NCBI RefSeq assembly: GCF_038443705.2
Contig: NZ_CP151767.2
Location: 1,798,001-1,862,000, forward strand
From: Yoonia sp. SS1-5
Lineage (GTDB): Bacteria; Pseudomonadota; Alphaproteobacteria; Rhodobacterales; Rhodobacteraceae
Direction of reading: 5' to 3'
DNA length: 64,000 nt
Part shown: positions 6,861 to 64,000 of the stretch, in pieces
Layout of the letters: each line of letters begins with the position of its first letter
Numbering within the stretch: the stretch's first letter is position 1
Made by a program: the position numbers and the translations under genes
The notes under the pieces: generated by a model
What the model was told of the DNA's origin: nothing
Database searches by the model: none
The model's input: the letters and a program-made list of their open reading frames with translations, nothing else

Positions 6861-6862
6861 CG

Positions 6863-7570: not shown

Positions 7571-7584
7571 GAACGGGCCTTTGG

Positions 7585-7965: not shown

Positions 7966-7991
7966 GGATCCGCTCCTTTGTTTGTGGTTCA

Positions 7992-9254
<1,263 letters not shown>

Positions 9255-48413: not shown

Positions 48414-49859
48414 ATGCTTACGATTCCCGGCGTTGAAATCACCGTTGTCAAAGAACTCGTCCCGCGCGGCCTTGCTGCAGCGGGCACTTTGGGCATTGTG
48501 GGCCCCTGCGAGATTGCAAACACGGATCAACCTTTGCGGGAATTAAGCACGATCCAGGAGTTCCGCGATTTGTTCGGCGCAGGCTCGATCACCTCGATGC
48601 CCGAGGTTGAGCTGGCCTTTGCCAATGGGCTGCGTGCGGTGATCGTTGCGGCCCTTCCGGCAACGGCTGGCGTGGCAGCCACCGCAACGATCCCGGTTAG
48701 CCAGACCAGCGCTGGCGGCGACACCCGGGTCGAACAGATGGCTGTGACGGCCCGTGCCGCTGGCCGGTGGGGCAATGATCTGCGTGTTCGTTTCCTCTCG
48801 AAGGGTGCAGGCAGCGCGCAGGCGGTTGATGTTTTCATCTACACGTCGGACGCCGCTGTCGCGAATAACCGCGCCGCCGAGACATTCCGCAATCTCTCAA
48901 CCCAGGCCAGCGATCCGCGGTTTTTCATGAGCGTGATCAACGGGGAAAGCGGCCTGATCCGGATGGCCCCCGTCATTCCGGCCTTTATCGCAGGTGGCGG
49001 CAGCGCCATGCCCGAAAACACAAATGCCACCGCTGCCCCGACGCCCCTGATCAACGGGCAAGAAGCAACCGTCGCGGAATATAGCGCCGCGTTGGAGCGC
49101 CTAGAAACACAGCCGCAGATCGACATGGTGATCGCCTCCAACCTGATCAGCTCGACCACAATTGCAACCGAACTCTATTCGACCGTGATCTCGCATTGCG
49201 AGGCGATGAGCCGGAAGGCGCAGAACCGTATCGGCTTTGGCCAGATCGTGCCACATGGTACGGCCCGGCCAGATATCGACGCGGCCCGCACGATGGCCGG
49301 TGTGCTGACATCTGACCGTTTTGTGCTGACCGCACCTTTTGGGACGGTTGGCGCTGTTGCCGGTCTTGTATCCGGGCAGCAATATTTCCGGTCCCCGACC
49401 TACAAGACACTGCGCGGGATTGTGGCGCCAAATTTCGACTTCACCGATGGTGATCTGCGCGCGCTGTTGCGCGCCGGGCTATTGCCAGTGGACAAGCTGC
49501 CGCGCAAAGGGGTTGCCGTGATCAAGGGGATCGCAACCAGTCAGGAACAGATCAACGTGCAGCGCACAGCCGACCGGGCCGTGCGGACCGTTCAGAACAT
49601 CGCCATCGACTATGTCGGTCTGCTGAACAATCAGGCCCAGCGCTCGGCCCTGCGTCAGCGCATTGACGAGGCCTTCAACGCCATGTTCCGCGAGGGTGCG
49701 CTGGTGCCATCAGCCGATGGTCTGTCGCCGCCCTACGAGGTGGAAGTGACCGCAACCAACGCCGAGGCAGCCGCCGGGATCGTTCGGATCGGTATCGCGG
49801 TCCGCCCCGTCCGCGCCATTGATTTCATCTATGCCACTTTGAACGTCAAAGCCTTTTAA
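48414..49859 (+). CDS. Contractile tail sheath protein
   Basis: 481 residues, usual length for phage/CIS sheaths. N-terminal IPGVEITVVKELVPRGLAAAGTLGIVGPC is the sheath handshake region. The C-terminal domain (VQRTADRAVRTVQNIAIDYVGLLNN, then EVEVTATNAEAAAGIVRIGIAVRPVRAIDFIYATL) is the conserved sheath fold. AAAGAAAGG lies upstream. First gene of the cluster; it contracts to drive the inner tube. Confidence 0.9.
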   Translation: MLTIPGVEITVVKELVPRGLAAAGTLGIVGPCEIANTDQPLRELSTIQEFRDLFGAGSITSMPEVELAFANGLRAVIVAALPATAGVAATATIPVSQTSAGGDTRVEQMAVTARAAGRWGNDLRVRFLSKGAGSAQAVDVFIYTSDAAVANNRAAETFRNLSTQASDPRFFMSVINGESGLIRMAPVIPAFIAGGGSAMPENTNATAAPTPLINGQEATVAEYSAALERLETQPQIDMVIASNLISSTTIATELYSTVISHCEAMSRKAQNRIGFGQIVPHGTARPDIDAARTMAGVLTSDRFVLTAPFGTVGAVAGLVSGQQYFRSPTYKTLRGIVAPNFDFTDGDLRALLRAGLLPVDKLPRKGVAVIKGIATSQEQINVQRTADRAVRTVQNIAIDYVGLLNNQAQRSALRQRIDEAFNAMFREGALVPSADGLSPPYEVEVTATNAEAAAGIVRIGIAVRPVRAIDFIYATLNVKAF

Positions 49860-49935
49860 CCAAAGGCCCTGACCACCAACAGCTTCAGCAAGTGACGGCG
49901 CCGCATGATCTGCGGCGCACAGGAAAGGATTGCCC

Positions 49936-50328
49936 ATGCCCAAGATACTTAGCGCCAACCGCTCCAAGGTGCTCATCGACGGAGAACCGATGGAGGGACT
50001 GCAGGATATCAGTTTTGTGACTGACAGGCCCACCGCCGATATCGCGGCGATAGGCGAGGCTGAACGGATCGGGGTCGTCTTTGGAACCACCAAGGTCACC
50101 GGGGTGATCAAGGCCAAGTCGGCGCTTGATACTGTCGAAGAGAAATTCGCCAATAACCAAAGTTTTCAGATCGTTATCTCGACCAATTTTGACGGCCCAG
50201 ATGGCGAGGTCGAGAACGTCATCTCGCTGCAGGAATGCTATGCCCATGGCAAGCGTTTCGCGATGGGCGTCGGTGGCACCGCCGAGACCCTGTATGACTT
50301 TACCGCAACACGCGAGTCCGCAGGCTAA
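49936..50328 (+). CDS. Tail tube protein
   Basis: 130 residues from the ATG at 49936 (AGGAAAGGA upstream; a TTG at 49930 is less likely). Small beta-rich protein (ANRSKVLIDGEPMEGLQDISF, GVVFGTTKVTGVIKAKSALD) directly after the sheath gene, the usual place and size for the hexameric tube protein. The identification rests on order, size and beta character. Confidence 0.75.
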   Translation: MPKILSANRSKVLIDGEPMEGLQDISFVTDRPTADIAAIGEAERIGVVFGTTKVTGVIKAKSALDTVEEKFANNQSFQIVISTNFDGPDGEVENVISLQECYAHGKRFAMGVGGTAETLYDFTATRESAG

Positions 50329-51158
50329 TGGGCAAGGCGGCGATGTCCGAGCCCCGGCAGATCAGCCGCGATGGCATCACCTATGTGATCAGCCTGCCCG
50401 ATTGGGGCGAGTGGCTGACCATCCTTGATCGTGCATCAAGGGGTATGGATGCCGCAGATCAGGCCGACATAACGCGGCTATTACGCCTTTGGATCGCCAG
50501 TTCCGTGACCGTCACAAAAGATGGCCGGACCAGCACGCTGGGTTCCATTGACGACCTGCCCGCCGATCTGGCCGACGACCTGGTCGCAGAAGGCAGCGCA
50601 GCCCTGCAGGATGCAACCGCCGCGCTGGACATCCGGCAGGAAACGGACCCTGCGACAGGCGAAATCACAATCCATTGCCAAATGGGTCAATATCACCTGC
50701 GGCCGCTGTCATTCGGTGAACGCAACGCCTGCCTGTCCCGCAATATGGGCCTGCATCTTGGGCAGCCCGAAATTGACGCCTCGGCCTACGAGGTGGCGCT
50801 TGTTGCCGCATCTGTCACGGTGGGCGACGGGAATCGTCTTCGCCATGCCGACCTGATGGCCCTGCCCCTGGCCTTGGGTGAGGCACTGGTCAATGCCGCC
50901 CGCACCCTGTCGGACGCAGGCAAGGAAGACGAAATCACCGCCTTTGCCCAGGCGGGCAAACCCCATCCGGATCTGGAGCTTGCAACACTTTGCCTGACAT
51001 TCGGGATGACACCCGAACAGGCCATGGCACTGCCTGCAACAACCGCCCGCCGCCTGAATGTCGCCGCAGGCCTGCTGCAAGCAGCGCAACCCGTTGCCAA
51101 TGCTGCCCCGATGCCAGAGGACGACCGCGTCACCCGGATCGTTGTGCATGATGACTGA
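50328..51158 (+). CDS. Probable tail assembly (chaperone-like) protein
   Basis: 276 residues, start overlapping the tube stop (TAATG). Contains WLTILDRASRGMD and the LRPLSFGERNACL block, then a helical region (LALGEALVNAARTLSDAGKEDEI, LATLCLTFGMTPEQAMALP). Position corresponds to the tail assembly chaperone of Mu-like tails. Family not firmly recognised. Confidence 0.5.
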   Translation: MGKAAMSEPRQISRDGITYVISLPDWGEWLTILDRASRGMDAADQADITRLLRLWIASSVTVTKDGRTSTLGSIDDLPADLADDLVAEGSAALQDATAALDIRQETDPATGEITIHCQMGQYHLRPLSFGERNACLSRNMGLHLGQPEIDASAYEVALVAASVTVGDGNRLRHADLMALPLALGEALVNAARTLSDAGKEDEITAFAQAGKPHPDLELATLCLTFGMTPEQAMALPATTARRLNVAAGLLQAAQPVANAAPMPEDDRVTRIVVHDD

Positions 51159-52137
51159 GTTTCGCGCCCATATCCGCGCCCGTTTGGGTCATCGGCTGGC
51201 CCTGAGCCTCGACAGCCTTGTGCCTGTCGCTGCAGCCGGACAAGCCCGCCGTCATTCGGTTGCCTCGGCTGCCGACATACAGGACGGCATGCCGTTTGAT
51301 AGCGCAGTCTTCCAGACGCAGCACGTTCAGCCGCCTGCCCCGTCACCAGAGCGCACGACCCAGACAACACGGACGCAGCCGCCTGCCGACATGCCGGCCC
51401 GCGCCGACAGGTTAACCGGACAAGCCCCACGCCCGCCGGCATTGCGTTTGGTCAGCGATCAGGACGATGCACCGCACCCCCTGCCGCTTGATCGGGATGC
51501 GCCCATGCACCCTGCACCCGCCATCAGCGGCAGCATGGATGCACCAACACAAACTGCGACAACGGGCGCTGATATGCCCGGTGCAACGACGGATGCGGCA
51601 CCATCTCTATTGCAGCAGCGCATGAACGCTGATGCGACGGCCACCACGCCGCGCGTGCCCAATTCACCCGACACCGTCCTCGCAGCCATTTTGCGCAATG
51701 CCCAATCGCGGCGCGCAACGATGACGTATCCGTTTGAAGGCACGTTCCATTTACAGAGGCAATCTGACGCCACCGCTCACGGCACCTCTCACGCGCGATT
51801 GGGTGGTTCGGCCACATCTGATCAGCTGCCTCGGCGCGTGGCCGACCCTACTCTTCCGGTCAGTCCCGTCGGGCAAGCGCCCAGTGTAATGGCGATCCGG
51901 ACCACATCGCCCGATGCAACGTCGTCCCTGTCGCCCATTGCGCAACTGGACGCCTATCTGCCGCGCGAACGGATCCGGCCCAATGCCTCCGTTTCGGCAC
52001 CGGACAAACAATCCGCCGACCGGGCTGAAACCGACGATGACTTTATGTTTGATCAACGGCTTCGCGCCGCACTCTCGCGCATTTTGACGGATGATCTGCG
52101 GCGCCATGGTCTCGGCACCGATGGGGAGGGCTGGTAA
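51148..52137 (+). CDS. Pro/Thr/Ala-rich, largely disordered tail-cluster protein
   Basis: About 329 residues from the ATG at 51148 (or 51151), overlapping the previous gene by about 10 bases. The N-terminal about 50 residues and the C-terminal about 35 (FDQRLRAALSRILTDDLRRHGLG) look helical and structured; about 230 residues between are low-complexity and rich in Pro, Thr, Ala and Asp. It sits in the place of the tape measure protein of Mu-like tails, but a disordered Pro-rich middle is unusual for one. Function unknown. Confidence 0.6.
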   Translation: MMTEFRAHIRARLGHRLALSLDSLVPVAAAGQARRHSVASAADIQDGMPFDSAVFQTQHVQPPAPSPERTTQTTRTQPPADMPARADRLTGQAPRPPALRLVSDQDDAPHPLPLDRDAPMHPAPAISGSMDAPTQTATTGADMPGATTDAAPSLLQQRMNADATATTPRVPNSPDTVLAAILRNAQSRRATMTYPFEGTFHLQRQSDATAHGTSHARLGGSATSDQLPRRVADPTLPVSPVGQAPSVMAIRTTSPDATSSLSPIAQLDAYLPRERIRPNASVSAPDKQSADRAETDDDFMFDQRLRAALSRILTDDLRRHGLGTDGEGW

Positions 52138-52742
52138 TGCAGGAAACCGTTCTTATCGGCGATCTGGAACTCGACAAGGTTCTTGATATCGAGGTCAGTC
52201 AAAGCCGCAAATTGGCCGCACATCCGATCCCCGGATGGGATGGTGACCTGATCCAGGATATGGGCGAGGCCGCCGCCGAAATTACGATCCGCGGTATTGC
52301 CCATGGCGAAGATGCCGGACAACGGCTGGAGGATTTGCGCGCCGCGTTTGGCGATGGGACCCCGCTGGATTTTGTGTCCAGCGCGTCCGTCGCAACAGAG
52401 GTCGAACAAACACTGCTTGCCCGGCTCGATGTGGTCCAGTCGGGGCATCTGAACGGCGGGTATATGTACGCGATGACATTGCGGCGCTACGTCCCCCCGC
52501 CCGAGCCGACAATCGGCGGGTTTTCTGCAGATTTCCTGCAGGATCTGGGTGATCTGAATGTCGCTGACGCGCTGGCGAACACGGGTGCTTTTGCAGATGC
52601 ATTGGGCACCGCGCAAGGGGCGCTCGACTCCGTCAATGCGGCGTTGGACGTGCTCGAAGATGCCAAGAATTTTGTCGAAGGTGCATTAGAACTTGAACCC
52701 CTCCTGAGCGCGATGGGCACCGTCGCATCATCAGCAAAATAG
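52137..52742 (+). CDS. Tail/baseplate protein (Mu gpN-like position)
   Basis: 201 residues, start overlapping the previous stop by one base. The N-terminal half (LIGDLELDKVLDIEVSQSRK, GDLIQDMGEAAAEITIRGIAHG, YMYAMTLRRYVPPP) resembles the beta domain at the start of phage circularisation/gpN or LysM-type baseplate proteins. The C-terminal about 80 residues are helical and Ala/Leu-rich. Assigned mainly by position between tube and hub genes. Confidence 0.55.
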   Translation: MQETVLIGDLELDKVLDIEVSQSRKLAAHPIPGWDGDLIQDMGEAAAEITIRGIAHGEDAGQRLEDLRAAFGDGTPLDFVSSASVATEVEQTLLARLDVVQSGHLNGGYMYAMTLRRYVPPPEPTIGGFSADFLQDLGDLNVADALANTGAFADALGTAQGALDSVNAALDVLEDAKNFVEGALELEPLLSAMGTVASSAK

Positions 52743-52783
52743 TCATTTTAGTACTGGTTTCTCATCAAGAAAGGAATTGAACG

Positions 52784-53395
52784 ATGCCTACCGGAACCGA
52801 ACTTTTCAACCTGCTGGACGCGCGCAGTCAGGCAATATCCAATGCGCTGGACGAGCTGAATATCGTGATCACGGGCGGCAGTTTTGCCCCTACTCTGATC
52901 TGGCCAACGACCGACGTCGCCGATCCGGTCGCGCATGCAGCGGGCATTGCGCCCGCAATGGAGGCACTGGAAGTCACTAACAACCTGGAAGACGCCATCG
53001 ACCGGCTGTTTGACGGGCTGCAGGGCGACGGTGCGATCAATGATGCGATCAAATCGGCAACTGACGCAATCCAGGAGGTCCTGACCGATGCGGCTGCCCT
53101 GAATGACGAGCTTGGGGTGCAGGACCGCGTGGACGCATTCAACGAGTTGAACGAGCCGGCAAGCGGCGGCCGTGACAACCCCAACTTTGGCTTCATCCCG
53201 GCCATTGAAGGGGTCATCAATGCAGCCGCAAATGCCAATGTGGATGCCGATGACGCGCTGGAACCTTTGCGTGCCGTGGGTGCCGCAATTGCGGCTGGCG
53301 GGGCCTATACGGTGTTTGCGGCCTACGCGACCTCATCCATCGAAATGCTCAACAAGGCCCTGACCATCGGTCCTGTGGGAAACAATGACCGCTAA
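52784..53395 (+). CDS. Helical tail-cluster protein of unknown function
   Basis: 203 residues, start preceded by GAAAGGAATTGAACG. Mostly helical and acidic (LLDARSQAISNALDELNIVI, AINDAIKSATDAIQEVLTDAAALNDELG) with an Ala-rich hydrophobic stretch near the C-terminus (AVGAAIAAGGAYTVFAAYA). The end overlaps the hub gene. It could be a short tape measure or a lumen protein; no family recognised. Confidence 0.55.
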   Translation: MPTGTELFNLLDARSQAISNALDELNIVITGGSFAPTLIWPTTDVADPVAHAAGIAPAMEALEVTNNLEDAIDRLFDGLQGDGAINDAIKSATDAIQEVLTDAAALNDELGVQDRVDAFNELNEPASGGRDNPNFGFIPAIEGVINAAANANVDADDALEPLRAVGAAIAAGGAYTVFAAYATSSIEMLNKALTIGPVGNNDR

Positions 53396-54350
53396 GGTCA
53401 CCATAGGTCTGGCGTTTGACGGCGCCAGTGACCCGGTTCCGGTCCGCAGCATGCGGCTGGACCGGGGCCTTGCCCATCCTGTGGGCCGGGCGAATATTGT
53501 CTTGCCCAAAGGGGTCAGCGCCCCGGAACCCGGTGCAATCGTGGATATCAGCATCACCCAGGGCGATGACAGCTTTGCCGTCATGAATGGCTATGTCGCC
53601 TGGCGCGGTACGGGGCAGGATCATACGGCCGTCAGCATTCTGGAACGGGCTGGCCGGATGAATATCCCCATGGTCGCAAAAAGCTATGGCAACACGACCG
53701 CCGGTCAGATCATTTCCGACCTGTGCAGCACCGCAGACGTACCGACCGCCACAATCCTCCCCGGTGCCACGATCCCGCATATGGTTCTGCGTGGTGATGC
53801 CACAATGCTGGATCACGCCAAACGCCTGGCCCGCATGTCCGGCCTTCTGTTGACCAGCCAGACATCCGGCGAACTGGCAACCGTGGCCATTGCGCTACCG
53901 GTTCCCGGCGCGCCTGCATCCCTTGATCGCGCCCGGCAAGCAAGCGTTGATGCGGTTGCCGGTGACGAACCGGGCGATGTCCGCGTGATTGGCGCAGGCG
54001 CCCTTGGGACGGCTGGCCCGGGTGCCAGCACCCTGCCCCTGGCGGATCCGTCCTTGATTGCATCCGGCCCCGATGATGCCCCCCGGACCCATCATATTGC
54101 CGGCATCCGGACCCTTGCCGACACCACGCTGGCGCAACTGGCGGCCAAACAGCGGCGCAGCGCGCGCGGGTCTGGCATCGCAATCACCACCCCTCTTCCC
54201 GAGGATCTGTCACCGAGTGATGTTACCCTGTTGCCGGACGAAAACGGTCTGCCAATCAGGCTGGCCCGGCTTGAAGCGCTGGAGCTTGGCTTTTCCGCCC
54301 ATTCTGGCCTTCTGGCCCAATACCGGTTTTCCGATCTGGAGGCGCTGTGA
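53385..54350 (+). CDS. Tail hub protein, gpD/gp27-like
   Basis: 321 residues. Beta-rich N-terminal barrel (PVPVRSMRLDRGLAHPVGRANIVLP, AIVDISITQGDDSF) followed by the characteristic AGQIISDLCSTADVPTATIL and MVLRGDATMLDHAKRLARMSGLLL region of gpD/VgrG-type hubs. In T6SS VgrG and many eCIS spikes the hub is fused to the gp5-like part; here the gp5-like protein is a separate adjacent gene, as in phages. Start overlaps the previous gene by 11 bases. Confidence 0.75.
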   Translation: MTAKVTIGLAFDGASDPVPVRSMRLDRGLAHPVGRANIVLPKGVSAPEPGAIVDISITQGDDSFAVMNGYVAWRGTGQDHTAVSILERAGRMNIPMVAKSYGNTTAGQIISDLCSTADVPTATILPGATIPHMVLRGDATMLDHAKRLARMSGLLLTSQTSGELATVAIALPVPGAPASLDRARQASVDAVAGDEPGDVRVIGAGALGTAGPGASTLPLADPSLIASGPDDAPRTHHIAGIRTLADTTLAQLAAKQRRSARGSGIAITTPLPEDLSPSDVTLLPDENGLPIRLARLEALELGFSAHSGLLAQYRFSDLEAL

Positions 54351-55069
54351 TGCATGATCTGGTTGGTCTGATCCGGCAAGTCGTGCAAACTGAAATGCGC
54401 GGCCAGACCCAAAGTGCCTTTGGGATCGTCGAGGTTGTGCACCTGCCCGACGCAACCGGGCTGAACCAATATGCCTGTGACATCAAGTTACAGGGCACCG
54501 ACGCGATCTACGAAAAGGTCCCCCTGACCACCGCCTATCTGGGCCATGTCGCCCCGCCCATTGTCGGTGACGTCGTTGTACTGACATTTATCGGCGGCGA
54601 CCCCGACCAGCCGATCATCAGCGGACTGGTCTTTTCAGACGCGGTCAGCCCGCCCGAGATTGCCGCGGGTGAGGCCCTGCTGAAACTGCCTCATGACGGC
54701 GCCGATGATGCCCGGATCGACACCCGCCAGACGGCTGGCCAGAACGGATCGCGCAGTTGGAGCGTGACCCTTCCTTCTGGTCCGGTTCTGACGCTGACCG
54801 ACGGCACAATTTCGGCCACGTTGGACGACCGGACAATGACGTTGGACGGTGACGCAGGCGAGGCAACAATCCAGACGGGCGGCGGGCAGATCACCCTGAC
54901 CGACAGCGGCGATATCACCATCACCGGCGATGGCGCCCTGACGCTTGAAGCGGCCAGCGACATCACCCTCAAGGCTGGTGCCAATCTGGCGGTCGAGGCT
55001 GGCGCAAACGCAGAAATCAAATCCTCGGGCACGATGGACGTCAAAGGCGCCGTCATCAACCTGAACTGA
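54350..55069 (+). CDS. Tail spike/baseplate assembly protein V (gp5-like)
   Basis: 239 residues from the ATG at 54350 (TGATG overlap with the hub gene). The OB-fold domain (GIVEVVHLPDATGLNQYACDIKL, PPIVGDVVVLTFIGGDPDQPIISGLVF) precedes a C-terminal beta-helix of short repeats (GDITITGDGALTLEAASDITL). This is the trimeric needle typical of gpV/gp5/VgrG spikes. It forms the membrane-piercing tip together with the following PAAR protein. Confidence 0.87.
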   Translation: MHDLVGLIRQVVQTEMRGQTQSAFGIVEVVHLPDATGLNQYACDIKLQGTDAIYEKVPLTTAYLGHVAPPIVGDVVVLTFIGGDPDQPIISGLVFSDAVSPPEIAAGEALLKLPHDGADDARIDTRQTAGQNGSRSWSVTLPSGPVLTLTDGTISATLDDRTMTLDGDAGEATIQTGGGQITLTDSGDITITGDGALTLEAASDITLKAGANLAVEAGANAEIKSSGTMDVKGAVINLN

Positions 55070-55084
55070 CAAAGGACGAAACCC

Positions 55085-55477
55085 ATGGGCCAACCCGGCG
55101 CAAAACAAGGTGACCAGATCATCGCGACTGATACCCATATCGTGATGATCCCCTCACCCGGCGGACCGATCCCCACGCCATTGCCGCACCCTTTTGTGGG
55201 CATCATTGATGACGGGCTGTCGTCGGATGTGAATATCGGCGGCATGGCGGCCGCAACGCAAGGGTCCAAGGCCAGCAACACCCCCCCGCATATCCCGCAG
55301 GGCGGGCCGTTCCAGTCGCCCCCGTCCAACAAGGGCGAAATCATCATGGGCAGTGCCACGGTCATGATCAACGGAAAACCTGCGGCACGAACCGGTGACA
55401 GCGCAACCACCTGCAACGACCCCGCCGATCTTCCGGCCGGAACGGTCATGGCCGTCAGCACCGTGTTCATCGGGTAA
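55085..55477 (+). CDS. PAAR-domain spike tip protein
   Basis: 130 residues. PAAR-like motifs include HIVMIPSPGGPIPTPLPHPF, NIGGMAAATQGSKAS, ATVMINGKPAARTGD and the terminal cysteine element TTCNDP. It caps the gp5-like spike and sharpens it. PAAR caps are routine in T6SS and extracellular contractile injection systems and occur in some phages. Preceded by AAAGGACGAAACCC. Confidence 0.87.
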   Translation: MGQPGAKQGDQIIATDTHIVMIPSPGGPIPTPLPHPFVGIIDDGLSSDVNIGGMAAATQGSKASNTPPHIPQGGPFQSPPSNKGEIIMGSATVMINGKPAARTGDSATTCNDPADLPAGTVMAVSTVFIG

Positions 55478-55491
55478 GGAAGGACAAGACC

Positions 55492-55956
55492 ATGCTTCGT
55501 GCCGATCTGGCCCATCAAGAGCTTTCCGATATCCGGCTTGTCCCCGCCCGCAGGGCCGACAGCGTGCTGGTTGTTGACCGCCGTGCAACTGAAACCGGTT
55601 GGGACCTTGATACCGAAAAGGATCTGGATGCGGTGGGGCAGGCAGCCTGGCTGGCGCTTGCGATCCCGCGCGGAACGCTCAGCCAATTGGGCCATCCGCG
55701 GTTCGGCTCGCGGCTGCATTTGCTGATCGGGGAAAACCTGAATGAACAGACGATTGCCCGGGCCCGGGCCTATATCCGCGAAGCACTGCGCAATGATACC
55801 CGGTTTCGCCTGATTGATGTCGATATCCTGCGAAACCCCGCAGATCCCGGCGCGCTTGACGCGCAGATCGTGATTGACCCGGGCGGCGCGCTGACCTTTC
55901 CGCTGGCCGCCCTGATCGCAGGCGAGACCGATGCCGCAGGAGCGATTGCATCATGA
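55492..55956 (+). CDS. Baseplate wedge protein, gpW/gp25-like
   Basis: 154 residues. The gp25/lysozyme-like fold shows in DLDAVGQAAWLALAIPRGTLSQLGHPRFGSRLHLLIG and the helix NEQTIARARAYIREALRNDTRFRLIDVDI. Core wedge component joining sheath to baseplate. AAGGAAGGAC precedes the ATG. Overlaps the baseplate J gene by 4 bases. Confidence 0.85.
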   Translation: MLRADLAHQELSDIRLVPARRADSVLVVDRRATETGWDLDTEKDLDAVGQAAWLALAIPRGTLSQLGHPRFGSRLHLLIGENLNEQTIARARAYIREALRNDTRFRLIDVDILRNPADPGALDAQIVIDPGGALTFPLAALIAGETDAAGAIAS

Positions 55957-57512
55957 CCCCCGATTTCGCCCGCCGCAGTTATCAGGAAGTCGTCGAGCAT
56001 ATCCTCGGCAATCTGACGGCGCAGGGTATCCTGACAGACACCGCCCCCGGATCAGTGACCCGCACATTGGTCGAGGCAACTTCGCGCGAGTTCGCAGAAC
56101 TTTATGCCCGCATGAATGCGGTTTACGAGGCCGGTTTTCTGGATACCGCCACAGGCAGTTCGCTGGACCAGATCGTTGCATTGATCGGCCTGACCCGACT
56201 GGCGGGCGAAACCGATATTGTTGAAATCCGCCTGCAACGCGACAACCGCGTCTCGGCCCGTGTGATCATCCCCGCTGGCGCCCAGATCGTGGTCGAAAGA
56301 CAAGGGCGTGACCGGGTGACCTATGTGGTGCTGGACGGTGACGAATTGCGTGCGGGCGAGGACAGTATCGTCATCACCCTGCGCGCTCTTCCGGCCCCGG
56401 ACGCGCCGGATGCAGAACTTGACATCAACGCAGATGATGTGACCCTGAATGCGGCCACTTTCGTGGCCCCGATTGCAGGCATTGCCAGCCTTGCGCTGGA
56501 ACAACCCTCGGTCCGGCTGGGCACAAACGAGACGGATGAACAGCTGCGCGAACGGGCGCGGATGGCCATCGCCTCGGCCGGTGGTGGCACGGAAAAGGCT
56601 TTGGAACAGGCCCTGCTGGAAGTCGAAGGGGTCGAGGGCGTGCGCCTGCGCGACGCGGGCGATCCGATTGAAGGTGTCCCGCTGAAGCCGGGCGAGATTG
56701 AGGTCATCCTCGATGGCAAGCCGCAAATCCTCGAACAGAACCGCGACGCGATCAAGCAGGCGATTGCCCGCGCCAAGGGGCCGGGCATCGTGGCCCGCCT
56801 GGGCAGCACGCAAAGCGTGGCCCTTGGCGGACGTGTCGTGATCAAACCGGCCAGTCCGGTGCTGTCCGGCGAACAGGCACTGACCCTTGTGCGCGATGTC
56901 GAGGATTTGCTGACCGAAACCGTCAGCGCGCTTGAAATCGGTGCGGGCCTGCAATGGAATCGGTTACTGGCCAACCTGATGGGGGTCGAAAATCTGGGCG
57001 ACGTGCTGGTCAACCAGTCTGAATTTGTGCTGACCAGCCTCGGCACCCCGCAAGCGCAGCCCCTTGCCGATATCACCATCAAGGAAACCGAACGCCTGAT
57101 CCCCGGCACTGACGGCGAGGCGCTTGTTGTCGTGCTTGAGGATCGGCCCGGTCTGGTCGTTTCGGTCCAGTTGGATGCTCAGATCGTGGAACCAACCGGC
57201 CCGCTTGTCGATCAGCTGACCGCTGAATTGACCCAAGGTTTGATCAATTATCTCGAGACATTGGATACTAGCAAACCGGGCGTACAGCTATCGCATGTCG
57301 CACTTGTCGATCTGTTGACCGGTCCGGACGGTGTCACCGTGCTGAAAGGCGAGGTCACGGCGGCCAATCTGACAATATCTGTTCTGGAAACGGATGAGGG
57401 ATCACTGAAAACCCTCACATCCACTGGCACCATCCTTCTGGATTTGCCGCAGAACGGGATCCTGCGCTCTGACGACCCTGCCGCCACCGTCACATGGCAG
57501 GAGCCAAGCTGA
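55953..57512 (+). CDS. Baseplate protein J
   Basis: 519 residues with the gpJ/gp6-like architecture: N-terminal FARRSYQEVVEHILGNLTAQGILTDTAPGSVTRTLVEA, TGSSLDQIVALIGLTR, the GGTEKALEQALLEVEGVEGVRLRD segment and the beta-rich C-terminal half. Forms the baseplate ring with gp25 and gpI-like proteins. Confidence 0.88.
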   Translation: MTPDFARRSYQEVVEHILGNLTAQGILTDTAPGSVTRTLVEATSREFAELYARMNAVYEAGFLDTATGSSLDQIVALIGLTRLAGETDIVEIRLQRDNRVSARVIIPAGAQIVVERQGRDRVTYVVLDGDELRAGEDSIVITLRALPAPDAPDAELDINADDVTLNAATFVAPIAGIASLALEQPSVRLGTNETDEQLRERARMAIASAGGGTEKALEQALLEVEGVEGVRLRDAGDPIEGVPLKPGEIEVILDGKPQILEQNRDAIKQAIARAKGPGIVARLGSTQSVALGGRVVIKPASPVLSGEQALTLVRDVEDLLTETVSALEIGAGLQWNRLLANLMGVENLGDVLVNQSEFVLTSLGTPQAQPLADITIKETERLIPGTDGEALVVVLEDRPGLVVSVQLDAQIVEPTGPLVDQLTAELTQGLINYLETLDTSKPGVQLSHVALVDLLTGPDGVTVLKGEVTAANLTISVLETDEGSLKTLTSTGTILLDLPQNGILRSDDPAATVTWQEPS

Positions 57513-59968
57513 TGGCGCTGGATGCGGAAACCGTCATTGATCTGGCGCCTGCAGGCCAGTTTGGCCTGATCGACAGATACCTGCCCGATCCCTATCGGCG
57601 TGCGCTGAACAATGACGGCGATGCATTGGCCAGCCTGACACGCACCATGCGCGGGACCCTTCGCCGGGCGGGTGCGGAAATCGAGGCTGTCCAGCGTTCG
57701 CGCGCGTTGGCTTTTTTCAATGACCTGACCGATGGCCGCCTGCTTGGCGCATTGCACGATCAGGCCCCCTGGCCCGAAGACGACGTGCCCACATTCCGTG
57801 ATCGGCTGACCCGGGTTGCCGGGCTTGCCATGCGCGGTGCGGCGACATCCGACAGGCTGCTTAATCTGGCGGCCATCGCCTGCGGCGCCGCCCCCCTGAC
57901 ACGCACATCGGGCGCCAACCTGATCCTGCCGGAAACAGATTTCAGCTTTGTCATCACCCGGCAGGGACCCGACAATACAACCGAAACAACCAGTTTCATG
58001 GGCACCACCGGCGAGGCCCAGACCCGCCGCTATTTTGAAAAGGCGGCAAGCGGGCGTGTATTCCCGATTGATGTCTATGATGCCCCGATGCGCCTGCACC
58101 AGCAGGACATCACGCCATTGCCCGGCCCCGAATATCAATTTGTGATCGACAATCCGGCCAGCGAAAATCTCGGTGGGCTGGACGGCACCGATCCGATCCG
58201 CTGGCCTGATCCGATCTTTACGATCACTGCGGGCGCACAGCCCTTTGGCCCATTTGCTTTTGTGAATATCCATCAGGCCCAGGTGGTCATCGTCAATCGG
58301 CGCCTTGCCCCCGGCGCCACGCTAGAGGTCAGCATCCGGGACATGGCCTGGTCACATGCCGAGGCAGGCAGCACCACAATTGATGATTTCACCTGTTTTG
58401 GCACGAAAGAGGCGCTTTATGCGGGCTTTGCCTTGTCAGCCAATGACCACATCATCCCATCAGGCGGACCGGAGGCGGCCATCGGCCCGCTCATGTCCGT
58501 ACGCCGGGCCGAGAACCTGACCTTTACCGGGGCAGAGGCAGATGAGGCCCCCGATATGGGTGATTTTGCCGAAGCAAGCCCGCTGGCCCTGCCATCATTC
58601 CTAGGCGAAGGCCGCACGCAGTGGCGTCTTCTCTCCATTGCGCCAAACGCCCCCTCTGACGTCGAAATTCACAATGCCCAATTTGCTGCAGTGCCAAGTG
58701 ATGCCGATATCACCCTGTCTGCGCGCTGGTTCGGGCGCCGCCCTGGCGAATTCGCCGTCGATCTGCCGCCAAACGCGCTGGCACCGAACAGCGACGGGCC
58801 GCTGACCCACCGCGAGATTTGGCTGGATGCCATGATTGAGCGGTTCAAACTGGGTGGCACTGTCCGCATCGCCCGCGATCAACTGTTTTCACCCATGGCC
58901 GATTTCGTCGGCGCGCTTGAGCTTGATCTGGCCAGCGGCACAACACCTGCAGACATCTTTGAACTGGATAACGCCCTCGTCTTTGAAGACACGCTGGCCC
59001 CGCGCGATAGCGTCAGCATCCTGCCGACGATCAGTTTTGATGGCATATCGGCCCTTGTCCCTACTGACGAGATCGAGGTGATCGACGCGCAGATCAATAC
59101 CGATGTGCTGGTCAGTATCGGGCGGCCCGGCGACGCGATGACGCTGACAGAGGGGCTGCCGCCTGCATTCCGTTCAAACGTGGTGCCAACCGATAGTGTC
59201 AGTATCCTGCCCCGGCTGGAATTTGACGGCACCTCCGCCGCGATACCCGCTGATGAGGTCGATCTGGACCCCACGACCGTCGCCCCGGATGCCCTGATAA
59301 GCACGGTTCAACCAACGGATATTGTCACGGTGACGGTTGGTCTGCCCCCGATCCTCAGCTCTGGGGTGACGCCGACCGACAGCGTCAGCATTCTGCCCCG
59401 GCTGGAATTTGAGGCGACATCCAATGCCGGTCCGCAGGACGGTGTGGATATCGTCGATACAACCCTGCGGCCCGATGATCTGACAAGCGGCACCGCCCCG
59501 AGCGACGCCATTGAGCTGCGTGCCGGATTGCCGCCCGCACTAACGTCAGCTGTTGTGCCGACAGACAGCATCGTCGTTGATCCCGGTGCGGTCCCGCAGC
59601 GGGAACCGGTCGTCTTTCGTTTTGGATCAGCCGTTGTCCCCACCGATACTGTCGGGGTCGATCCCGGCGCGCGGCCCCAGCCCGCACAGCCGGTCAGGTT
59701 CGCCTTTCGGTCCAACCTGCGCACGGGCGATGAGGTCTCAATTGATCCGGGCCGCCGCCCGACGCCGATTGATCCGCGCATTCCCATTCCGGGTCCCGGC
59801 CCCATTTTCGACCCGGTCAGGCCGGTCGTTGATGTCCGGCCCGGACGCGGCGGGATCCTGCGCGGCGGCGGGAACGAGACCCCACAACAACCCATCCGTT
59901 TACGGCTGCAATCCGGCGTCACGCCAGACGATCAAATCCGGGTTCGCCGCCGGCGCAACCGCACATAA
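57512..59968 (+). CDS. Large gpI-like baseplate protein with C-terminal tandem repeats
   Basis: 818 residues from the ATG at 57512 (CAGGAG upstream, TGATG overlap with gpJ gene). The N-terminal about 130 residues (FGLIDRYLPDPYRRALNNDGDALASL, DRLTRVAGLAMRGAATSDRLLNL) occupy the gpI/tail-I place. From about residue 490 to the end it carries at least a dozen copies of a short P-T/S-D-x-V-x-V/L motif. Four of them (PTDSVSILP type) recur at exactly 186-bp intervals (59006, 59192, 59378, 59564); copies then become closer, about 27-28 residues. The tail is Pro/Arg-rich. Much longer than usual gpI (about 200 residues). Confidence 0.7.
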   Translation: MALDAETVIDLAPAGQFGLIDRYLPDPYRRALNNDGDALASLTRTMRGTLRRAGAEIEAVQRSRALAFFNDLTDGRLLGALHDQAPWPEDDVPTFRDRLTRVAGLAMRGAATSDRLLNLAAIACGAAPLTRTSGANLILPETDFSFVITRQGPDNTTETTSFMGTTGEAQTRRYFEKAASGRVFPIDVYDAPMRLHQQDITPLPGPEYQFVIDNPASENLGGLDGTDPIRWPDPIFTITAGAQPFGPFAFVNIHQAQVVIVNRRLAPGATLEVSIRDMAWSHAEAGSTTIDDFTCFGTKEALYAGFALSANDHIIPSGGPEAAIGPLMSVRRAENLTFTGAEADEAPDMGDFAEASPLALPSFLGEGRTQWRLLSIAPNAPSDVEIHNAQFAAVPSDADITLSARWFGRRPGEFAVDLPPNALAPNSDGPLTHREIWLDAMIERFKLGGTVRIARDQLFSPMADFVGALELDLASGTTPADIFELDNALVFEDTLAPRDSVSILPTISFDGISALVPTDEIEVIDAQINTDVLVSIGRPGDAMTLTEGLPPAFRSNVVPTDSVSILPRLEFDGTSAAIPADEVDLDPTTVAPDALISTVQPTDIVTVTVGLPPILSSGVTPTDSVSILPRLEFEATSNAGPQDGVDIVDTTLRPDDLTSGTAPSDAIELRAGLPPALTSAVVPTDSIVVDPGAVPQREPVVFRFGSAVVPTDTVGVDPGARPQPAQPVRFAFRSNLRTGDEVSIDPGRRPTPIDPRIPIPGPGPIFDPVRPVVDVRPGRGGILRGGGNETPQQPIRLRLQSGVTPDDQIRVRRRRNRT
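59006..59755 (+). repeat. Tandem coding repeats in the gpI-like gene
   Basis: Four units of 62 codons begin with the Asp codon at 59006, 59192, 59378 and 59564; shorter units follow at 59645 and 59729. Unit ends differ, so the array is old or under selection, not a recent slippage product. Confidence 0.7.
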
Positions 59969-59992
59969 CCATTACCACCAAAGGAGATTATC

Positions 59993-60457
59993 ATGACCAA
60001 CGAAAACATTCACCCACGCGGACATATGACCCTGATCCTGCGCAATGATGCGGGCAAGGTGATTGAAACCATCAAGCATCCGAACCGTGTTCTTGATGGC
60101 GGGCGCACATTGCTGCTGAACATGCTGCGCGGGAACAGTGCTGCCACAAGCTATGGGCTGATCCTGGGCGCTGAAGGGTTTGAGCCCGAGGCGGACCGCC
60201 CGCTGACGCAGGATACCGCAATTCCGGTCACAACACCGCGGCGCCCGACACTTCGGCTGGCCAATGGCGTTTTGTCCGTGTCGTTCAACGGCAATATCGA
60301 ACGTGAAGGCGTGATTATCGGCGGCGGCATGACGGTGACATCGACGGCCGGGTCAACTGAAACCGTTTCGCTTTACAACTTTGCCCCGACCCCACGCGGT
60401 ATCGAGATGGAGGCCAATCAATCCGTCTCCGTCAATTTCCGCCTGACGATGGAATAA
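59993..60457 (+). CDS. Small tail-cluster protein of unknown function
   Basis: 154 residues, start preceded by AAAGGAGATTATC. Beta-rich, with GHMTLILRNDAGKVIETIKHPNRVLDGGRTLLLNMLRG at the N-terminus and a C-terminal SVNFRLTME. The layout resembles small phage tail or fibre-associated proteins, but no family is recognised. Confidence 0.6.
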   Translation: MTNENIHPRGHMTLILRNDAGKVIETIKHPNRVLDGGRTLLLNMLRGNSAATSYGLILGAEGFEPEADRPLTQDTAIPVTTPRRPTLRLANGVLSVSFNGNIEREGVIIGGGMTVTSTAGSTETVSLYNFAPTPRGIEMEANQSVSVNFRLTME

Positions 60458-60491
60458 ACCGCCACGATCCCGACCCTGAAGGAGCGTTCAG

Positions 60492-62279
60492 ATGCCCGAA
60501 GATATCCCAGAACGGTTTGAAATCGGCGAGTTGCTGTCAAGCGCCGCGCTGAACCGACTGCAGGAGCTGATCCTGCAACGGCTCGCCGATCACGATCATA
60601 CCGGTGGCGACCTGGCTGAGCCGCTGGGAACGGACGGATATACCGATCTGTCGGTCACAGAGCCGAAACTGGCCGATGGTGCAATTTCGGCCCGTACCGT
60701 TGCACCGGGCGCTATCACGGCTGACGGTCTGGCGGATGGGGCTGTCATTCTGGGCAAGATCGCGGCTGATGCAGTGGGCCGTGATAACATCGTTGACGGC
60801 GCAGTGACCGAAGACAAACTATCCCCGGCCGTGCGCGCATTGCTGGGGCGGACCGGAAATGGTGCCTCGTCCGCGTCGCAGGTAATCTGGCGTGATCCCA
60901 TTTTTGTCTATCCGATAGATACCGGTATTTCGATCGTCGATGGTATCATTGATCCCACGGTCTGGACATGGTTCCCGCCGGTTGTCAGCCTTGATGAAAA
61001 TAACATCCCGATCAAATTCAACCCCAACCGGGACCCCGACCTGACGACGATACCTGTCGATTTTGACGATCAGCGCCCCGGACGGGCAGAGTTAGAGGTT
61101 TTCCTCAACGACGCCGTGACCGATACGGCCATCAGCGTCATCGGTGTCGGTGCCGCCGGGCTGCCAGCAGGCGTGATCAACACCGGGGGCGGCGCGCGCG
61201 GCGGCATTGCAGGGCAACCAACAGGTACGTTTGGCACTGGAACCATTGGCACTGGCGGATTTATCGGCGGTGGCGTCAGCGGTCACAATGTCGTCTTCGG
61301 CGGCGGAAACCGTGGTGCCTTGGCCGGTAATGTCGGTGCGGGCACGTTTGCGGCCGGGAATGTCGGCGCTGGCACCCCCGCGGCAGGCAATCTGGGCGCA
61401 GCGGGTCCGGCTGGCGGGGCTTTTGCAGGTGGCCCCGGCGCTGGTGCGCTCTTCCGCGAGGGGATCGCGCGCACAGAAGGCCGCAGCATCGGCACCGAAG
61501 GGGTCTTTTTCGGCGGTCAGGAGGGGCCCGGCATGGCCACCGGCGGTGGCTTTGCGATCAATGAGGCGGGGCAGACCGCAGCAAAGCGCATGCTGGCGAT
61601 TGCAACCGTCGACGCAGAAGGCCGGCCGGTCGAAGCCGATGATGACAATGCCATTGTTGTCAGTTCCGGTTTCGCGGGCAAAGAGACATTTGCAGGCGAC
61701 AATGGCGTTGCCGATTTTCGCGCGCTTGACGGATCAAGCGGTGCGGCCCTGGACGCCGCGGCACGCTCGGCCGGGAAAACCCTTTTCAATCTGGGGATCG
61801 ACAATGAATATCTCGGCGGGATTGACGGGACGGACAATGTACAGGCGCAGGTTGATCTGGCACTGGCCGGTGACAGACGGTTCTTTGATGATGATCAGCC
61901 GCTTTGGGGCGGGGTCAGTATCCTGCCTGATATCTTCAATCTGCCGGAATTGTTGGGGACGGGCTATTCGCTGTCAGGCGGGCGCAACGTCCTGTCTGTC
62001 ACGCGCGAATTTCAAACCGGCGAGGTTTTTGAAACATGGGTCCGGGTCCGGTTTGTGACCCCCTATCGCAACTCGGCCTATGCCGTGACGGTCACGCCCC
62101 GCGTCAACAGCCGGTACGAGATGATCACCGCCAATATCCGCGCAAAGGCCACGGCCTATGTCGATATCAGCTTTACCGGGTTGCGCCAGACACCGACTGC
62201 GGGCCTTCAGTTCGAACAGACCAGCAAGCTTAGCTTTGATCTGGCCGTCTTTGGCGAGTTGGGCGCGCCGACCCGATGA
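60492..62279 (+). CDS. Probable tail fibre/receptor-binding protein
   Basis: 595 residues, start preceded by AAGGAGCG. An N-terminal helical/attachment part (about 1-45) leads to imperfect repeats of the DGAI/V-x-x-x-K/T-I/V type (about 50-110: SVTEPKLADGAISART, DGAVILGKIAADAV, DGAVTEDKLS), common in phage fibre shafts. A Gly/Ala-rich repeat region (about 235-315, such as GNVGAGTFAAGNVGAGT) and a beta-rich C-terminal domain follow. A surface-contacting fibre is the likely role. Confidence 0.65.
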   Translation: MPEDIPERFEIGELLSSAALNRLQELILQRLADHDHTGGDLAEPLGTDGYTDLSVTEPKLADGAISARTVAPGAITADGLADGAVILGKIAADAVGRDNIVDGAVTEDKLSPAVRALLGRTGNGASSASQVIWRDPIFVYPIDTGISIVDGIIDPTVWTWFPPVVSLDENNIPIKFNPNRDPDLTTIPVDFDDQRPGRAELEVFLNDAVTDTAISVIGVGAAGLPAGVINTGGGARGGIAGQPTGTFGTGTIGTGGFIGGGVSGHNVVFGGGNRGALAGNVGAGTFAAGNVGAGTPAAGNLGAAGPAGGAFAGGPGAGALFREGIARTEGRSIGTEGVFFGGQEGPGMATGGGFAINEAGQTAAKRMLAIATVDAEGRPVEADDDNAIVVSSGFAGKETFAGDNGVADFRALDGSSGAALDAAARSAGKTLFNLGIDNEYLGGIDGTDNVQAQVDLALAGDRRFFDDDQPLWGGVSILPDIFNLPELLGTGYSLSGGRNVLSVTREFQTGEVFETWVRVRFVTPYRNSAYAVTVTPRVNSRYEMITANIRAKATAYVDISFTGLRQTPTAGLQFEQTSKLSFDLAVFGELGAPTR

Positions 62280-63331
62280 TTTCTGCATTGCCTCTGTTGC
62301 TGGCCGATCATCTGGCCGCCGAGGTGACCGGGGTCGCCCTGCCGACAGGCCTGTTTACCGATCCCTGTCGCGGTGCGGTTGGTGATGTGACCTTTGCGGC
62401 AGATGCGGACGAGGCTGCGGTTTTTGTGCAGCTTGGTGCGCTGGATCAGGATGCGGGGATTGGGGCGCGCGCAGATGGCGAAGAGATCCGGTTGCCCTTC
62501 ACCGCCGAGGTTGATCTGGCCCTTGCAGGCCCCGAAACGACGGTTGTTGATGGCGCGGACCGCGATCCGGCGGACACCCCCGTGGCTGGCGCTGATCTGA
62601 TGTTGTCGGTTGTCACAGGTCATTTGAACACCGCCCGGGATGCGGGGCGCAATGCGCCCTTGTCACGCGCGGAAACCCGGGCCGAAGGGCGCAAACTGGC
62701 TGCTGAATGGCGGTTTGGCCAGATCGTGTCGATCACGCCTGATCTGGTCGCTGATCGCGTGGTCTGGCGGCTGAAGACACAGTTCGAGGGCGTCCAGACC
62801 CTCAGCCCACTGCCCGCCGAGGGTGGCCACATTGCGCGGGCCGAGATTGCCGGACAATTGGGTGACAACGCCTTTGCCGCTACGATCCAGGGGTCCTCTA
62901 ACCAACTGCCTTTGGCGCTATTTGTTGAAATCGGCCCGGAAAATGCGGAACGGCTGGCTAGTTTCGGGCTGGCCCGTCTTGGTGATCTGATGCGCGTGCC
63001 ACGGCTGGAGATTGCCGGACTGGCCGCGGAAATCGCCCGCGACGACGATGATCTACGCGATGCACTGACCGTCCTGCACGCGGTGTTGATGCTGCGGCTG
63101 GATGCGGTTTTGGCGGGGGTCAACGCGGCGTTTTTGTTCGAGCGGCATGCGGCCCTGACGCTTGATACCGTATGGGATGGGCAGACCCTGACACTACCGG
63201 ATGACATGCGCACCGATCAGCAACTGCGATTTCAGGTTATGGCCGCACAACTGATGCGACTGGTCCGGCCAGAAGACCGGGCGCGTGTCACGCTGGGACA
63301 GCTGACGACACTGGATACAGAGGCCCGGTAA
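62276..63331 (+). CDS. Tail-cluster protein of unknown function
   Basis: 351 residues, overlapping the fibre gene by 4 bases (ATGA). Alpha/beta composition with TAEVDLALAGPETTVVDGADRD and a helical second half (LGDLMRVPRLEIAGLAAEIARDDDDLRDALTVLHAVLMLRLDAVLAG). No family recognised. Its place after the fibre suggests an assembly or baseplate-peripheral role. Confidence 0.6.
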   Translation: MISALPLLLADHLAAEVTGVALPTGLFTDPCRGAVGDVTFAADADEAAVFVQLGALDQDAGIGARADGEEIRLPFTAEVDLALAGPETTVVDGADRDPADTPVAGADLMLSVVTGHLNTARDAGRNAPLSRAETRAEGRKLAAEWRFGQIVSITPDLVADRVVWRLKTQFEGVQTLSPLPAEGGHIARAEIAGQLGDNAFAATIQGSSNQLPLALFVEIGPENAERLASFGLARLGDLMRVPRLEIAGLAAEIARDDDDLRDALTVLHAVLMLRLDAVLAGVNAAFLFERHAALTLDTVWDGQTLTLPDDMRTDQQLRFQVMAAQLMRLVRPEDRARVTLGQLTTLDTEAR

Positions 63332-64000
63332 TGGCAACACGCGAAATCCGAGAATTACAGCAGGAAGTGACCGTTGTCGGCACTGTCGTGCAGGCAGGTA
63401 CGTTCACCGCCGTGTTGGATCAGGGCCTGCAGGGGTTGGCGGATTACGCCAGCACCGTCATCGCCAACACGCACCCCGATACCTATGGCGCCGTGACCGA
63501 AATCAACACGTCGATTGATGCGCTGACATCAACCGGCGCGATAGTGCGGGTTCCCGCAGGGGGCAGCGCCAGCCTGACGATTGAAGGTCTGGCAGATTGG
63601 CATTTTGATGCGGCGGCACTCGACCTTGATCCGCTGGGTCGGAATATGGGGTTGCCCATCGACCTTGGGGAAAGGCAGCCCGGCCCGCCCGCTTATACCT
63701 CTGGTTTCAGCTATGCGCCCAGCCAGCCGCTCTTTATCAATCAAATCGTCTACCGCTACGGGCTGCGCCCGCCAGTGCTGGGACCATTGATCACCCATTC
63801 GCCGCTGAACCTGATTGAACTTGCGCATGGGGGCGATCCGTTACGGTACTTTGTCAGTGCGGCCCAACCGGATAACAGCCAAGACACGCAGCAGGGTTTT
63901 GTCGGCGCCGTCGTGAACAAGATCACCGTCAGCGAGGCAATACAGTATCCGGCTGATCTGCTGCTCACCGCAATTATTCCCAATAAGGGCGACGGGCTAT
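63331..64000 (+). CDS. Tail-cluster protein, 3'-truncated by window edge
   Basis: Open frame from ATG 63331 (one-base overlap TAATG with the previous stop) running off the window after 223 codons. N-terminus MATREIRELQQEVTVVGTVV, then LDQGLQGLADYASTVIANT and a beta-rich part (VRVPAGGSASLTIEGLADW). No family recognised. Confidence 0.6.
   Translation, partial: MATREIRELQQEVTVVGTVVQAGTFTAVLDQGLQGLADYASTVIANTHPDTYGAVTEINTSIDALTSTGAIVRVPAGGSASLTIEGLADWHFDAAALDLDPLGRNMGLPIDLGERQPGPPAYTSGFSYAPSQPLFINQIVYRYGLRPPVLGPLITHSPLNLIELAHGGDPLRYFVSAAQPDNSQDTQQGFVGAVVNKITVSEAIQYPADLLLTAIIPNKGDGL

What the first reader, a model, noticed from the sequence alone, without database searches (positions are those of the whole stretch)
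48414..64000. Mu-order contractile tail cluster with PAAR tip and no phage genes in view
Sheath, tube, assembly protein, hub, gp5-like spike, PAAR, gp25, gpJ, gpI-like and fibre occur in one tightly coupled transcript of more than 15 kb. No capsid, terminase, lysis, integrase or repressor is seen, and the upstream neighbours are ordinary chromosomal genes. It could be a domesticated tailocin or a new type of extracellular contractile injection system in Rhodobacteraceae. Several members (51148, 52784, 59993, 62276, 63331) have no recognisable family.
Basis: partly seen in the sequence, partly recalled or inferred. Interest (0 to 1): 0.8.

Follow-up and report, generated by a model that had tools for sequence, protein, structure and literature searches.

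The report
Headless contractile tail cluster without ATPase
A bacterial chromosome carries a compact 16-gene set for a spring-loaded, virus-tail-like needle with no virus head, no recognisable cell-bursting genes and no motor-protein gene of the kind known injection systems carry; the same set turns up in distantly related bacteria, so it looks like a rare, little-studied kind of bacterial injection device.

Summary
Sixteen co-oriented genes (48414-65040; the last ends 1,040 bases past the window) encode sheath, tube, chaperone-position and tape-measure-position proteins, a DNA_circ_N protein, hub, spike, PAAR, gp25, gpJ, a gpI-position protein, a fibre and three proteins without a family. Chromosomal genes lie on both sides; no capsid, terminase, lysis, integrase or AAA+ ATPase family was found among the 16. 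It is not the edge of a prophage. Gene 15 (62276) has a tail-terminator fold, so the tail is capped without a head. The unit recurs in the same order between chromosomal genes in Cohnella pontilimi and Thiohalocapsa (16 of 16) and a Symbiobacteriaceae MAG (15 of 16); the sheaths form one supported clade across two phyla, so it moves horizontally. Of 71 more distant loci, 48 share at least 7 of 9 core genes. It works like an extracellular contractile injection system or tailocin but fits neither fully: no cluster ATPase, gp19-type tube or DUF4157 cargo found; no lysis cassette, no close phage kin. One loose published rule would still count it as eCIS-related. Target, cargo and release are unknown. 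Verdict: new variant of a known kind.

The parts
48414..49859 (+). g01 tail sheath, 481 aa
   Evidence: PF04984 E 1.1e-9, PHROG_279 E 3.3e-26; profile to solved CIS sheaths 9ezm E 4.5e-8, 8bky E 4.4e-6, Afp3 E 0.0024
49936..50328 (+). g02 tail tube, 130 aa
   Evidence: PF18906 E 0.001, under cut-off; follows the sheath in 5 of 5 close loci; no PDB match
50328..51158 (+). g03, position of a tail assembly chaperone, 276 aa
   Evidence: Position; PHROG_344 E 0.073 only; homologues in the 5 close loci and in 3 of 8 extended distant clusters
51148..52137 (+). g04, position of the tape measure, 329 aa, low in hydrophobic residues
   Evidence: Position; 308-383 aa in 5 members; sequence kinship shown only with Rhodobaculum (E 6e-7), and between Cohnella and Symbiobacteriaceae (E 6e-8)
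52137..52742 (+). g05, DNA_circ_N / gpU-like tail protein, 201 aa
   Evidence: PF07157 E 4.6e-7, PHROG_184 E 1.9e-8
52784..53395 (+). g06, 203 aa, no family
   Evidence: Homologues in close loci only; no convincing PDB match
53385..54350 (+). g07 baseplate hub, Mu gp44 type, 321 aa
   Evidence: Profile to 1wru (Mu gp44) E 2e-5 and to 9gtr_q E 7.8e-5
54350..55069 (+). g08 spike with OB domain, 239 aa
   Evidence: PF04717 E 1.9e-5; TIGR03361 E 4e-8 over part, under cut-off
55085..55477 (+). g09 PAAR tip, 130 aa, no toxin extension
   Evidence: PF05488 E 7.3e-12; 62-69% identical in the 4 close loci that reach it
55492..55956 (+). g10 gp25-type baseplate wedge, 154 aa
   Evidence: PF07409 E 8.4e-7, PHROG_975 E 6.4e-10
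55953..57512 (+). g11 baseplate gpJ, 519 aa
   Evidence: PF04865 E 1.8e-8, PHROG_6 E 2.1e-29
57512..59968 (+). g12, gpI position, 818 aa, C-terminal repeats of about 20 residues
   Evidence: Position; no family match; 12 repeat units
59993..60457 (+). g13, 154 aa, no family, conserved in the wider group
   Evidence: Profile match in 8 of 8 extended distant clusters
60492..62279 (+). g14 tail fibre, 595 aa, glycine-rich middle
   Evidence: PHROG_892 E 1e-11; homologues in Cohnella, Thiohalocapsa and Symbiobacteriaceae
62276..63331 (+). g15 tail terminator (cap), 351 aa, with extra C-terminal helical part
63331..64000 (+). g16, 569 aa, no family; runs on to 65040 (L002:331-2040)
   Evidence: Homologues in Cohnella (E 5e-13), Symbiobacteriaceae (E 2e-9), weakly Thiohalocapsa (E 0.001), as last gene

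Best explanation
The cluster encodes a complete headless contractile injection particle. Inferred working: baseplate proteins g10-g12 assemble round hub g07, spike g08 and PAAR tip g09; tube g02 and sheath g01 grow on it to a length set by g04, helped by g03; g15 caps tube and sheath where a phage would carry neck and head. Fibre g14, with g12 and g13, contacts the target. On contact the sheath contracts and drives the PAAR-tipped tube through the envelope of a neighbouring cell. No toxin family is in the cluster, so it either kills by perforation, as R-tailocins do, or carries cargo encoded elsewhere. With no membrane anchor and no lysis gene in the cluster, particles are probably released when some producers lyse by other means. 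Shown: gene content, order, boundaries, terminator fold of g15, recurrence across phyla. Inferred: assembly path, ruler role of g04, target recognition, extracellular action, killing.
For: Core tail parts in tail order; unit with defined first and last gene between chromosomal genes in own genome, Cohnella, Thiohalocapsa and a Symbiobacteriaceae MAG next to spoIVA; 16 intact frames although the sheath is only 46-50% identical in those hosts, which points to selection; terminator fold; no integrase within 350 kb and no portal within 0.9 Mb; no convincing membrane span; PAAR 62-69% identical across phyla.
Against: No expression or particle data. Tube, g03, g04 and g12 rest on position or weak matches. 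No lysis or effector gene was found, so release and effect are unexplained. An AAA gene lies 24.6 kb downstream; a part encoded there or elsewhere cannot be excluded. The nearest solved sheath is from a membrane-bound archaeal CIS, which would suit a cell-bound mode.
Confidence: 0.7

Rival explanations
1. A true extracellular contractile injection system of the Afp/PVC/Streptomyces CIS kind that lacks, or uses from elsewhere, its ATPase and delivers effectors encoded elsewhere.
For: Nearest solved sheaths are CIS sheaths; separate PAAR gene; a published rule (two of Afp1/5, Afp2/3/4, Afp11, Afp16 domains within 20 genes of a PAAR gene; PMC8651086, passages) is met by sheath plus Baseplate_J.
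Against: No AAA, gp19-type tube, Pvc16_N or DUF4157 match among the 16 proteins at E 1; hub and spike are two genes; best solved hub is Mu gp44.
Confidence: 0.3
2. A domesticated tailocin: the tail of a lost Mu-like phage kept to kill relatives by perforation.
For: Mu-like order (recalled) and hub; fibre; terminator fold shared with the R2 pyocin collar; no toxin family seen.
Against: No lysis or regulator family in the cluster; no phage relative by tblastn for the sheath or g12, and gpJ only below 29% in the listed rows; the same unit in other phyla suggests an old system, not a recent loss; separate PAAR gene.
Confidence: 0.3
3. A remnant of a prophage whose other genes have decayed or moved.
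For: All parts are phage-tail kin; no clean empty site could be read.
Against: Same bounded unit in four genomes of two phyla; 16 intact frames; no head, packaging or integrase gene near.
Confidence: 0.05
4. A cell-bound, T6SS-like injector acting on contact.
For: No lysis genes; nearest solved sheath belongs to a membrane-bound haloarchaeal CIS (PMC11566945, abstract, passages and discussion).
Against: No convincing membrane-span candidate among the 16 proteins (the highest, 1.88 in the sheath, is far under the 2.5 of three membrane controls); a fibre gene is present.
Confidence: 0.1

Closest known systems
Contractile tail of phage Mu and its kin
   Same: Gene order (Mu order recalled), split hub and spike, hub profile to Mu gp44 at E 2e-5, terminator fold also seen in Mu.
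   Different: No head, packaging, lysis or transposition genes; separate PAAR gene; sheath has no tblastn match among 50,697 phage records; tape-measure-position protein short and poor in hydrophobic residues.
eCIS of Afp/PVC/MAC and Streptomyces CIS type
   Same: Sheath profile finds their sheaths; PAAR, gp25, gpJ, cap fold; chromosomal, headless, no phage genes near; horizontal spread.
   Different: No ATPase, gp19-type tube, Pvc16_N or DUF4157 match in the cluster; one tube and one sheath gene; hub and spike separate.
R-type tailocins (pyocin R2, diffocin)
   Same: Headless phage tail with fibre; collar and terminator fold; no visible cargo.
   Different: No lysis or regulator genes found, PAAR gene, no close phage relative, same unit in unrelated phyla.
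Haloarchaeal CIS of Halogeometricum borinquense
   Same: Best solved relative of the sheath (9ezm, E 4.5e-8).
   Different: That cluster has an ATPase in its figure legend and toxin-immunity pairs, and is membrane-bound (PMC11566945).

Membership tests
eCIS | Sheath, Baseplate_J, spike and PAAR genes together, headless, no phage head genes within 10 kb | tested here: met
   10 kb rule from PMC8213781 passages
eCIS | Two of Afp1/5 gp19-type tube, Afp2/3/4 sheath, Afp11 Baseplate_J, Afp16 DUF4255 domains within 20 genes of a PAAR gene (rule of PMC8651086) | tested here: met
   Sheath PF04984 and Baseplate_J PF04865 only
eCIS | AAA+ ATPase (Afp15 type) in the cluster; that this is a hallmark is recalled, the papers read do not define it so | tested here: not met
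   No AAA family at E 1 in the 16 proteins. Nearest genomic AAA gene is 24.6 kb downstream among other genes
eCIS | Tube of T4 gp19 type | tested here: not met
   g02 matches only Phage_tube_2, E 0.001; no PDB match. Fold not predicted
eCIS | Afp16/Pvc16-type cap | tested here: inconclusive
eCIS | At least ten core genes with one of Afp12, 13, 14, 16 (survey rule of PMC8213781) | not tested
   The survey's own profiles were not available here (rule seen)
R-type tailocin | Headless phage tail with fibre | tested here: met
R-type tailocin | Lysis cassette and regulators with the tail genes (recalled) | tested here: not met
   No such family among the 16 proteins
R-type tailocin | Kills bacteria by perforation without cargo | not testable with these tools
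   Needs particles and target cells
Intact prophage | Capsid, portal, terminase and integrase with the tail | tested here: not met
Type VI secretion system | TssJ/L/M membrane complex and ClpV in the cluster | tested here: not met
   No such family among the 16 proteins; the rest of the genome was not searched

The most novel reading that the evidence does not exclude
The window's unit and the other layouts found with it (48 of 71 distant loci with at least 7 of 9 core genes, in many bacterial phyla and in archaea) are an unrecognised superfamily of headless contractile injectors that works without an ATPase, beside eCIS, T6SS and tailocins. Clade A, to which the window belongs, is a 16-gene form with a short, hydrophobic-poor ruler and repeat-bearing baseplate arms, passed whole between Gram-negative and Gram-positive hosts.
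Probability: 0.4. Interest if true: 0.8.

Novelty: new variant of a known kind. Interest (0 to 1): 0.6.

Why it matters
If particles form, a contractile injector can be built, capped and fired from 16 genes without the AAA+ ATPase of known eCIS clusters and without a phage lysis cassette; the role of that ATPase could then be tested by comparison. The wider group is scattered over many phyla, and surveys that require eCIS-specific core genes could miss it. Named isolates (Cohnella pontilimi, Rhodobaculum claviforme) carry the unit or its first 12 genes, so it can be studied in the laboratory.

Tried and rejected
Ordinary prophage: rejected. Gene transfer agent: not tested directly; the only portal match is 0.97 Mb away. 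Empty site: in 7 of 7 relatives fetched, the permease, ureidoglycolate lyase and OHCU decarboxylase block is kept, but the genes on the cluster side differ from the window's, so no insertion ends could be read. g16 model: pLDDT 37, not searched. Profiles of g06, g12 and g16 gave no convincing PDB match. The sigma-70 scan gave no + strand promoter ahead of g01; the one terminator-like site at the 3' end is on the minus strand. The PF14065 genome search is uninformative, since no control rang. Viral sets: single-sequence IMG/VR scans with sheath and gpJ found no relative, the sheath alignment one (L081); plasmids none for the sheath; PAAR one weak phage record.

Results that limit the reading. 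g04 is linked by sequence only in two pairs (window-Rhodobaculum, Cohnella-Symbiobacteriaceae); the Thiohalocapsa one is placed by position alone, and g15 and g16 of the window match Thiohalocapsa only weakly (E 0.0008 and 0.001 in a set of four), though Cohnella links them strongly. The profile of g12 drifted into gpJ proteins on iteration. Gene calls come from my own codon-usage script, which cut or missed g04 in GC-rich genomes. A relaxed P-loop pattern matched the glycine-rich g14 of the window, the 603- and 604-aa proteins of the Blastocatellia and Sedimentitalea clusters and a 1,776-aa Verrucomicrobia protein; a strict one matched structural genes in L021, L023, L055 and L059 and two opposite-strand neighbours in L011. 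I read these as chance but did not test them. Of 71 distant loci, 23 show 4 or fewer core genes; many are cut by contig ends or flank, but L011 and L068 are followed by opposite-strand genes and may not be clusters. The tree left out 4 of 76 loci (L035, L037, L053, L068: sheath call missing or short); B, C and D labels followed a rough rule and are not single groups there; only A is.

Literature: ten searches of the open PMC library found no description of this unit. Preprints and most subscription papers are not held, and the 2019 eCIS survey was not available, so I do not claim that it is unpublished. Seen: PMC11566945 abstract, passages, discussion; PMC8213781, PMC10598620, PMC8651086, PMC10553843 passages only; the rest search listings only.
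Full report
What is there. The 16 genes between 48414 and 65040 (window position = L002 position + 63000) lie on one strand with gaps of -11 to +76 bases. Family searches name the sheath, DNA_circ_N protein, spike, PAAR, gp25-type wedge, gpJ and a fibre repeat; the tube and hub are weak alone, and the hub profile finds Mu gp44 in the PDB at E 2e-5. The genes at 51148, 52784, 59993, 62276 and 63331 have no match better than E 0.016, and the gpI-position protein none at all.

Where it ends. The unit stops with g16 at 65040. The next genes are a convergent permease, ureidoglycolate lyase, an OHCU decarboxylase fusion and an ABC transporter ATPase; further on, to 103000, I read only the frame list by eye and saw no phage gene. 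Directly upstream lie an RTX serralysin-type protease, a TbpB-like protein and an ABC permease; the 42 called genes from 585 to 40689 gave only cellular families at E 1e-10. The nearest integrase match is more than 350 kb away and the only portal match 0.97 Mb away. So this is not the left end of a prophage.

Is it unique? A scan of 84,980 species genomes with a sheath alignment gave 75 loci, and IMG/VR one more. Five share the window's order: Rhodobaculum claviforme (contig ends after g12), a Symbiobacteriaceae MAG, Cohnella pontilimi, a Bacillota MAG (ends in g08) and Thiohalocapsa sp. ML1. I extended three of them. Cohnella and Thiohalocapsa have 16 of 16 parts in the same order; the Symbiobacteriaceae MAG has 15 of 16, with 31 bases and no room for g13 between g12 and g14. 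Each unit starts at the sheath, closes with g16 and is followed by chromosomal genes: amidohydrolase and penicillin amidase in Cohnella, DUF294 and exonuclease in Thiohalocapsa, MntP and spoIVA in the Symbiobacteriaceae MAG. Matches of g13-g16 between these hosts were checked directly; g04 is the weak point. The sheath tree puts the window in a six-row clade (100/100) of Alpha- and Gammaproteobacteria and Bacillota. In genome samples the sheath rings in 2 of 99 relatives, 3 of 390 of the order, 1 of 398 of the phylum, own genome counted each time, the other two only remotely, and in 1 of 296 of Cohnella's order, Cohnella itself. A rare unit with the same content in distant hosts points to transfer of a working whole.

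The wider group. Profiles from clade A find g01, g02, g05, g07, g08, g10, g11, g12 and g13 in 8 of 8 distant clusters that I extended, g09 in 5 and g03 in 3 (the g12 profile had drifted into gpJ). Of the 71 distant loci, 48 show at least 7 of these 9 genes and 23 show 4 or fewer. Layouts: A (window); B (Myxococcus, Zoogloea: hub before the DNA_circ_N protein, no PAAR match); C (Acidobacteriota, Sphingobium, Paracoccus, Sedimentitalea: long sheaths, PAAR, very long last genes); D (archaea). No separate ATPase gene was seen in the clusters read to their end, subject to the pattern matches told under Tried and rejected.

How it would work. Sheath, tube, baseplate, sharp tip, fibre and cap, but no head and no packaging: the anatomy is that of a contractile injector. 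No cluster protein has a convincing membrane span, so a cell-bound mode is less likely. Without lysis genes, release must rely on other lysis; without a toxin family, action is by perforation or by cargo made elsewhere. These last steps are inference.

Known systems. It works like eCIS and R-tailocins. I do not file it as eCIS, because the ATPase, gp19-type tube and DUF4157 cargo were tested in the cluster and not met; that these are hallmarks is partly recalled. Against this, the rule of PMC8651086 would count it as eCIS-related, and the nearest solved sheaths are CIS sheaths. I do not file it as an R-tailocin: no lysis or regulator family, no close phage. The survey of PMC8213781 asked for ten core genes and one of Afp12, 13, 14 or 16; whether this group was inside it I could not test.

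Noticed in passing
window 57512-59968, from about residue 497 of the protein: Twelve copies of a unit of about 20 residues, with a stronger 62-residue super-period, at the C-terminal side of the gpI-position protein; other repeat lengths in Rhodobaculum and Cohnella. It recalls fibre-shaft repeats; function unknown.
   Followed up: partly
window 62276-63331, residues about 205-351 of the protein: Extra C-terminal helical part with a helix-hairpin-helix-like stretch on a tail terminator; such a DNA-binding type motif on a DNA-free tail cap is odd.
   Followed up: partly
L066, L073, L080, L049, L054: Layout-C clusters in Sedimentitalea, Paracoccus, Sphingobium, Verrucomicrobia and Blastocatellia end with proteins of about 1,100 and 1,600-2,200 aa that could be large fibres or cargo.
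   Followed up: no
L012, L013, L028-L031, L043, L081: Archaeal layout D, with a gene of about 120 aa and usually one of 460-760 aa between tube and DNA_circ_N gene; one of them sits on an IMG/VR viral contig. Provirus or injector was not settled.
   Followed up: no
window 9161-65084: In relative G012 the homologues of window genes 6258-9161 lie 5.5 kb from the permease, against 56 kb here: the whole stretch is variable, not only the cluster.
   Followed up: partly
L094 (G042) and L095 (G317): Two other genomes of the order carry remote, partial sheath matches (E 5e-28 and 1e-26), perhaps another layout or a prophage.
   Followed up: no
L003:6093-8033: AAA gene on the minus strand, 24.6 kb beyond the cluster; taken as unrelated by distance and strand only.
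   Followed up: no
window 46052-48052: RTX serralysin-type M10 protease on the same strand, ending 361 bases before the sheath gene; no sign that it belongs to the unit.
   Followed up: no
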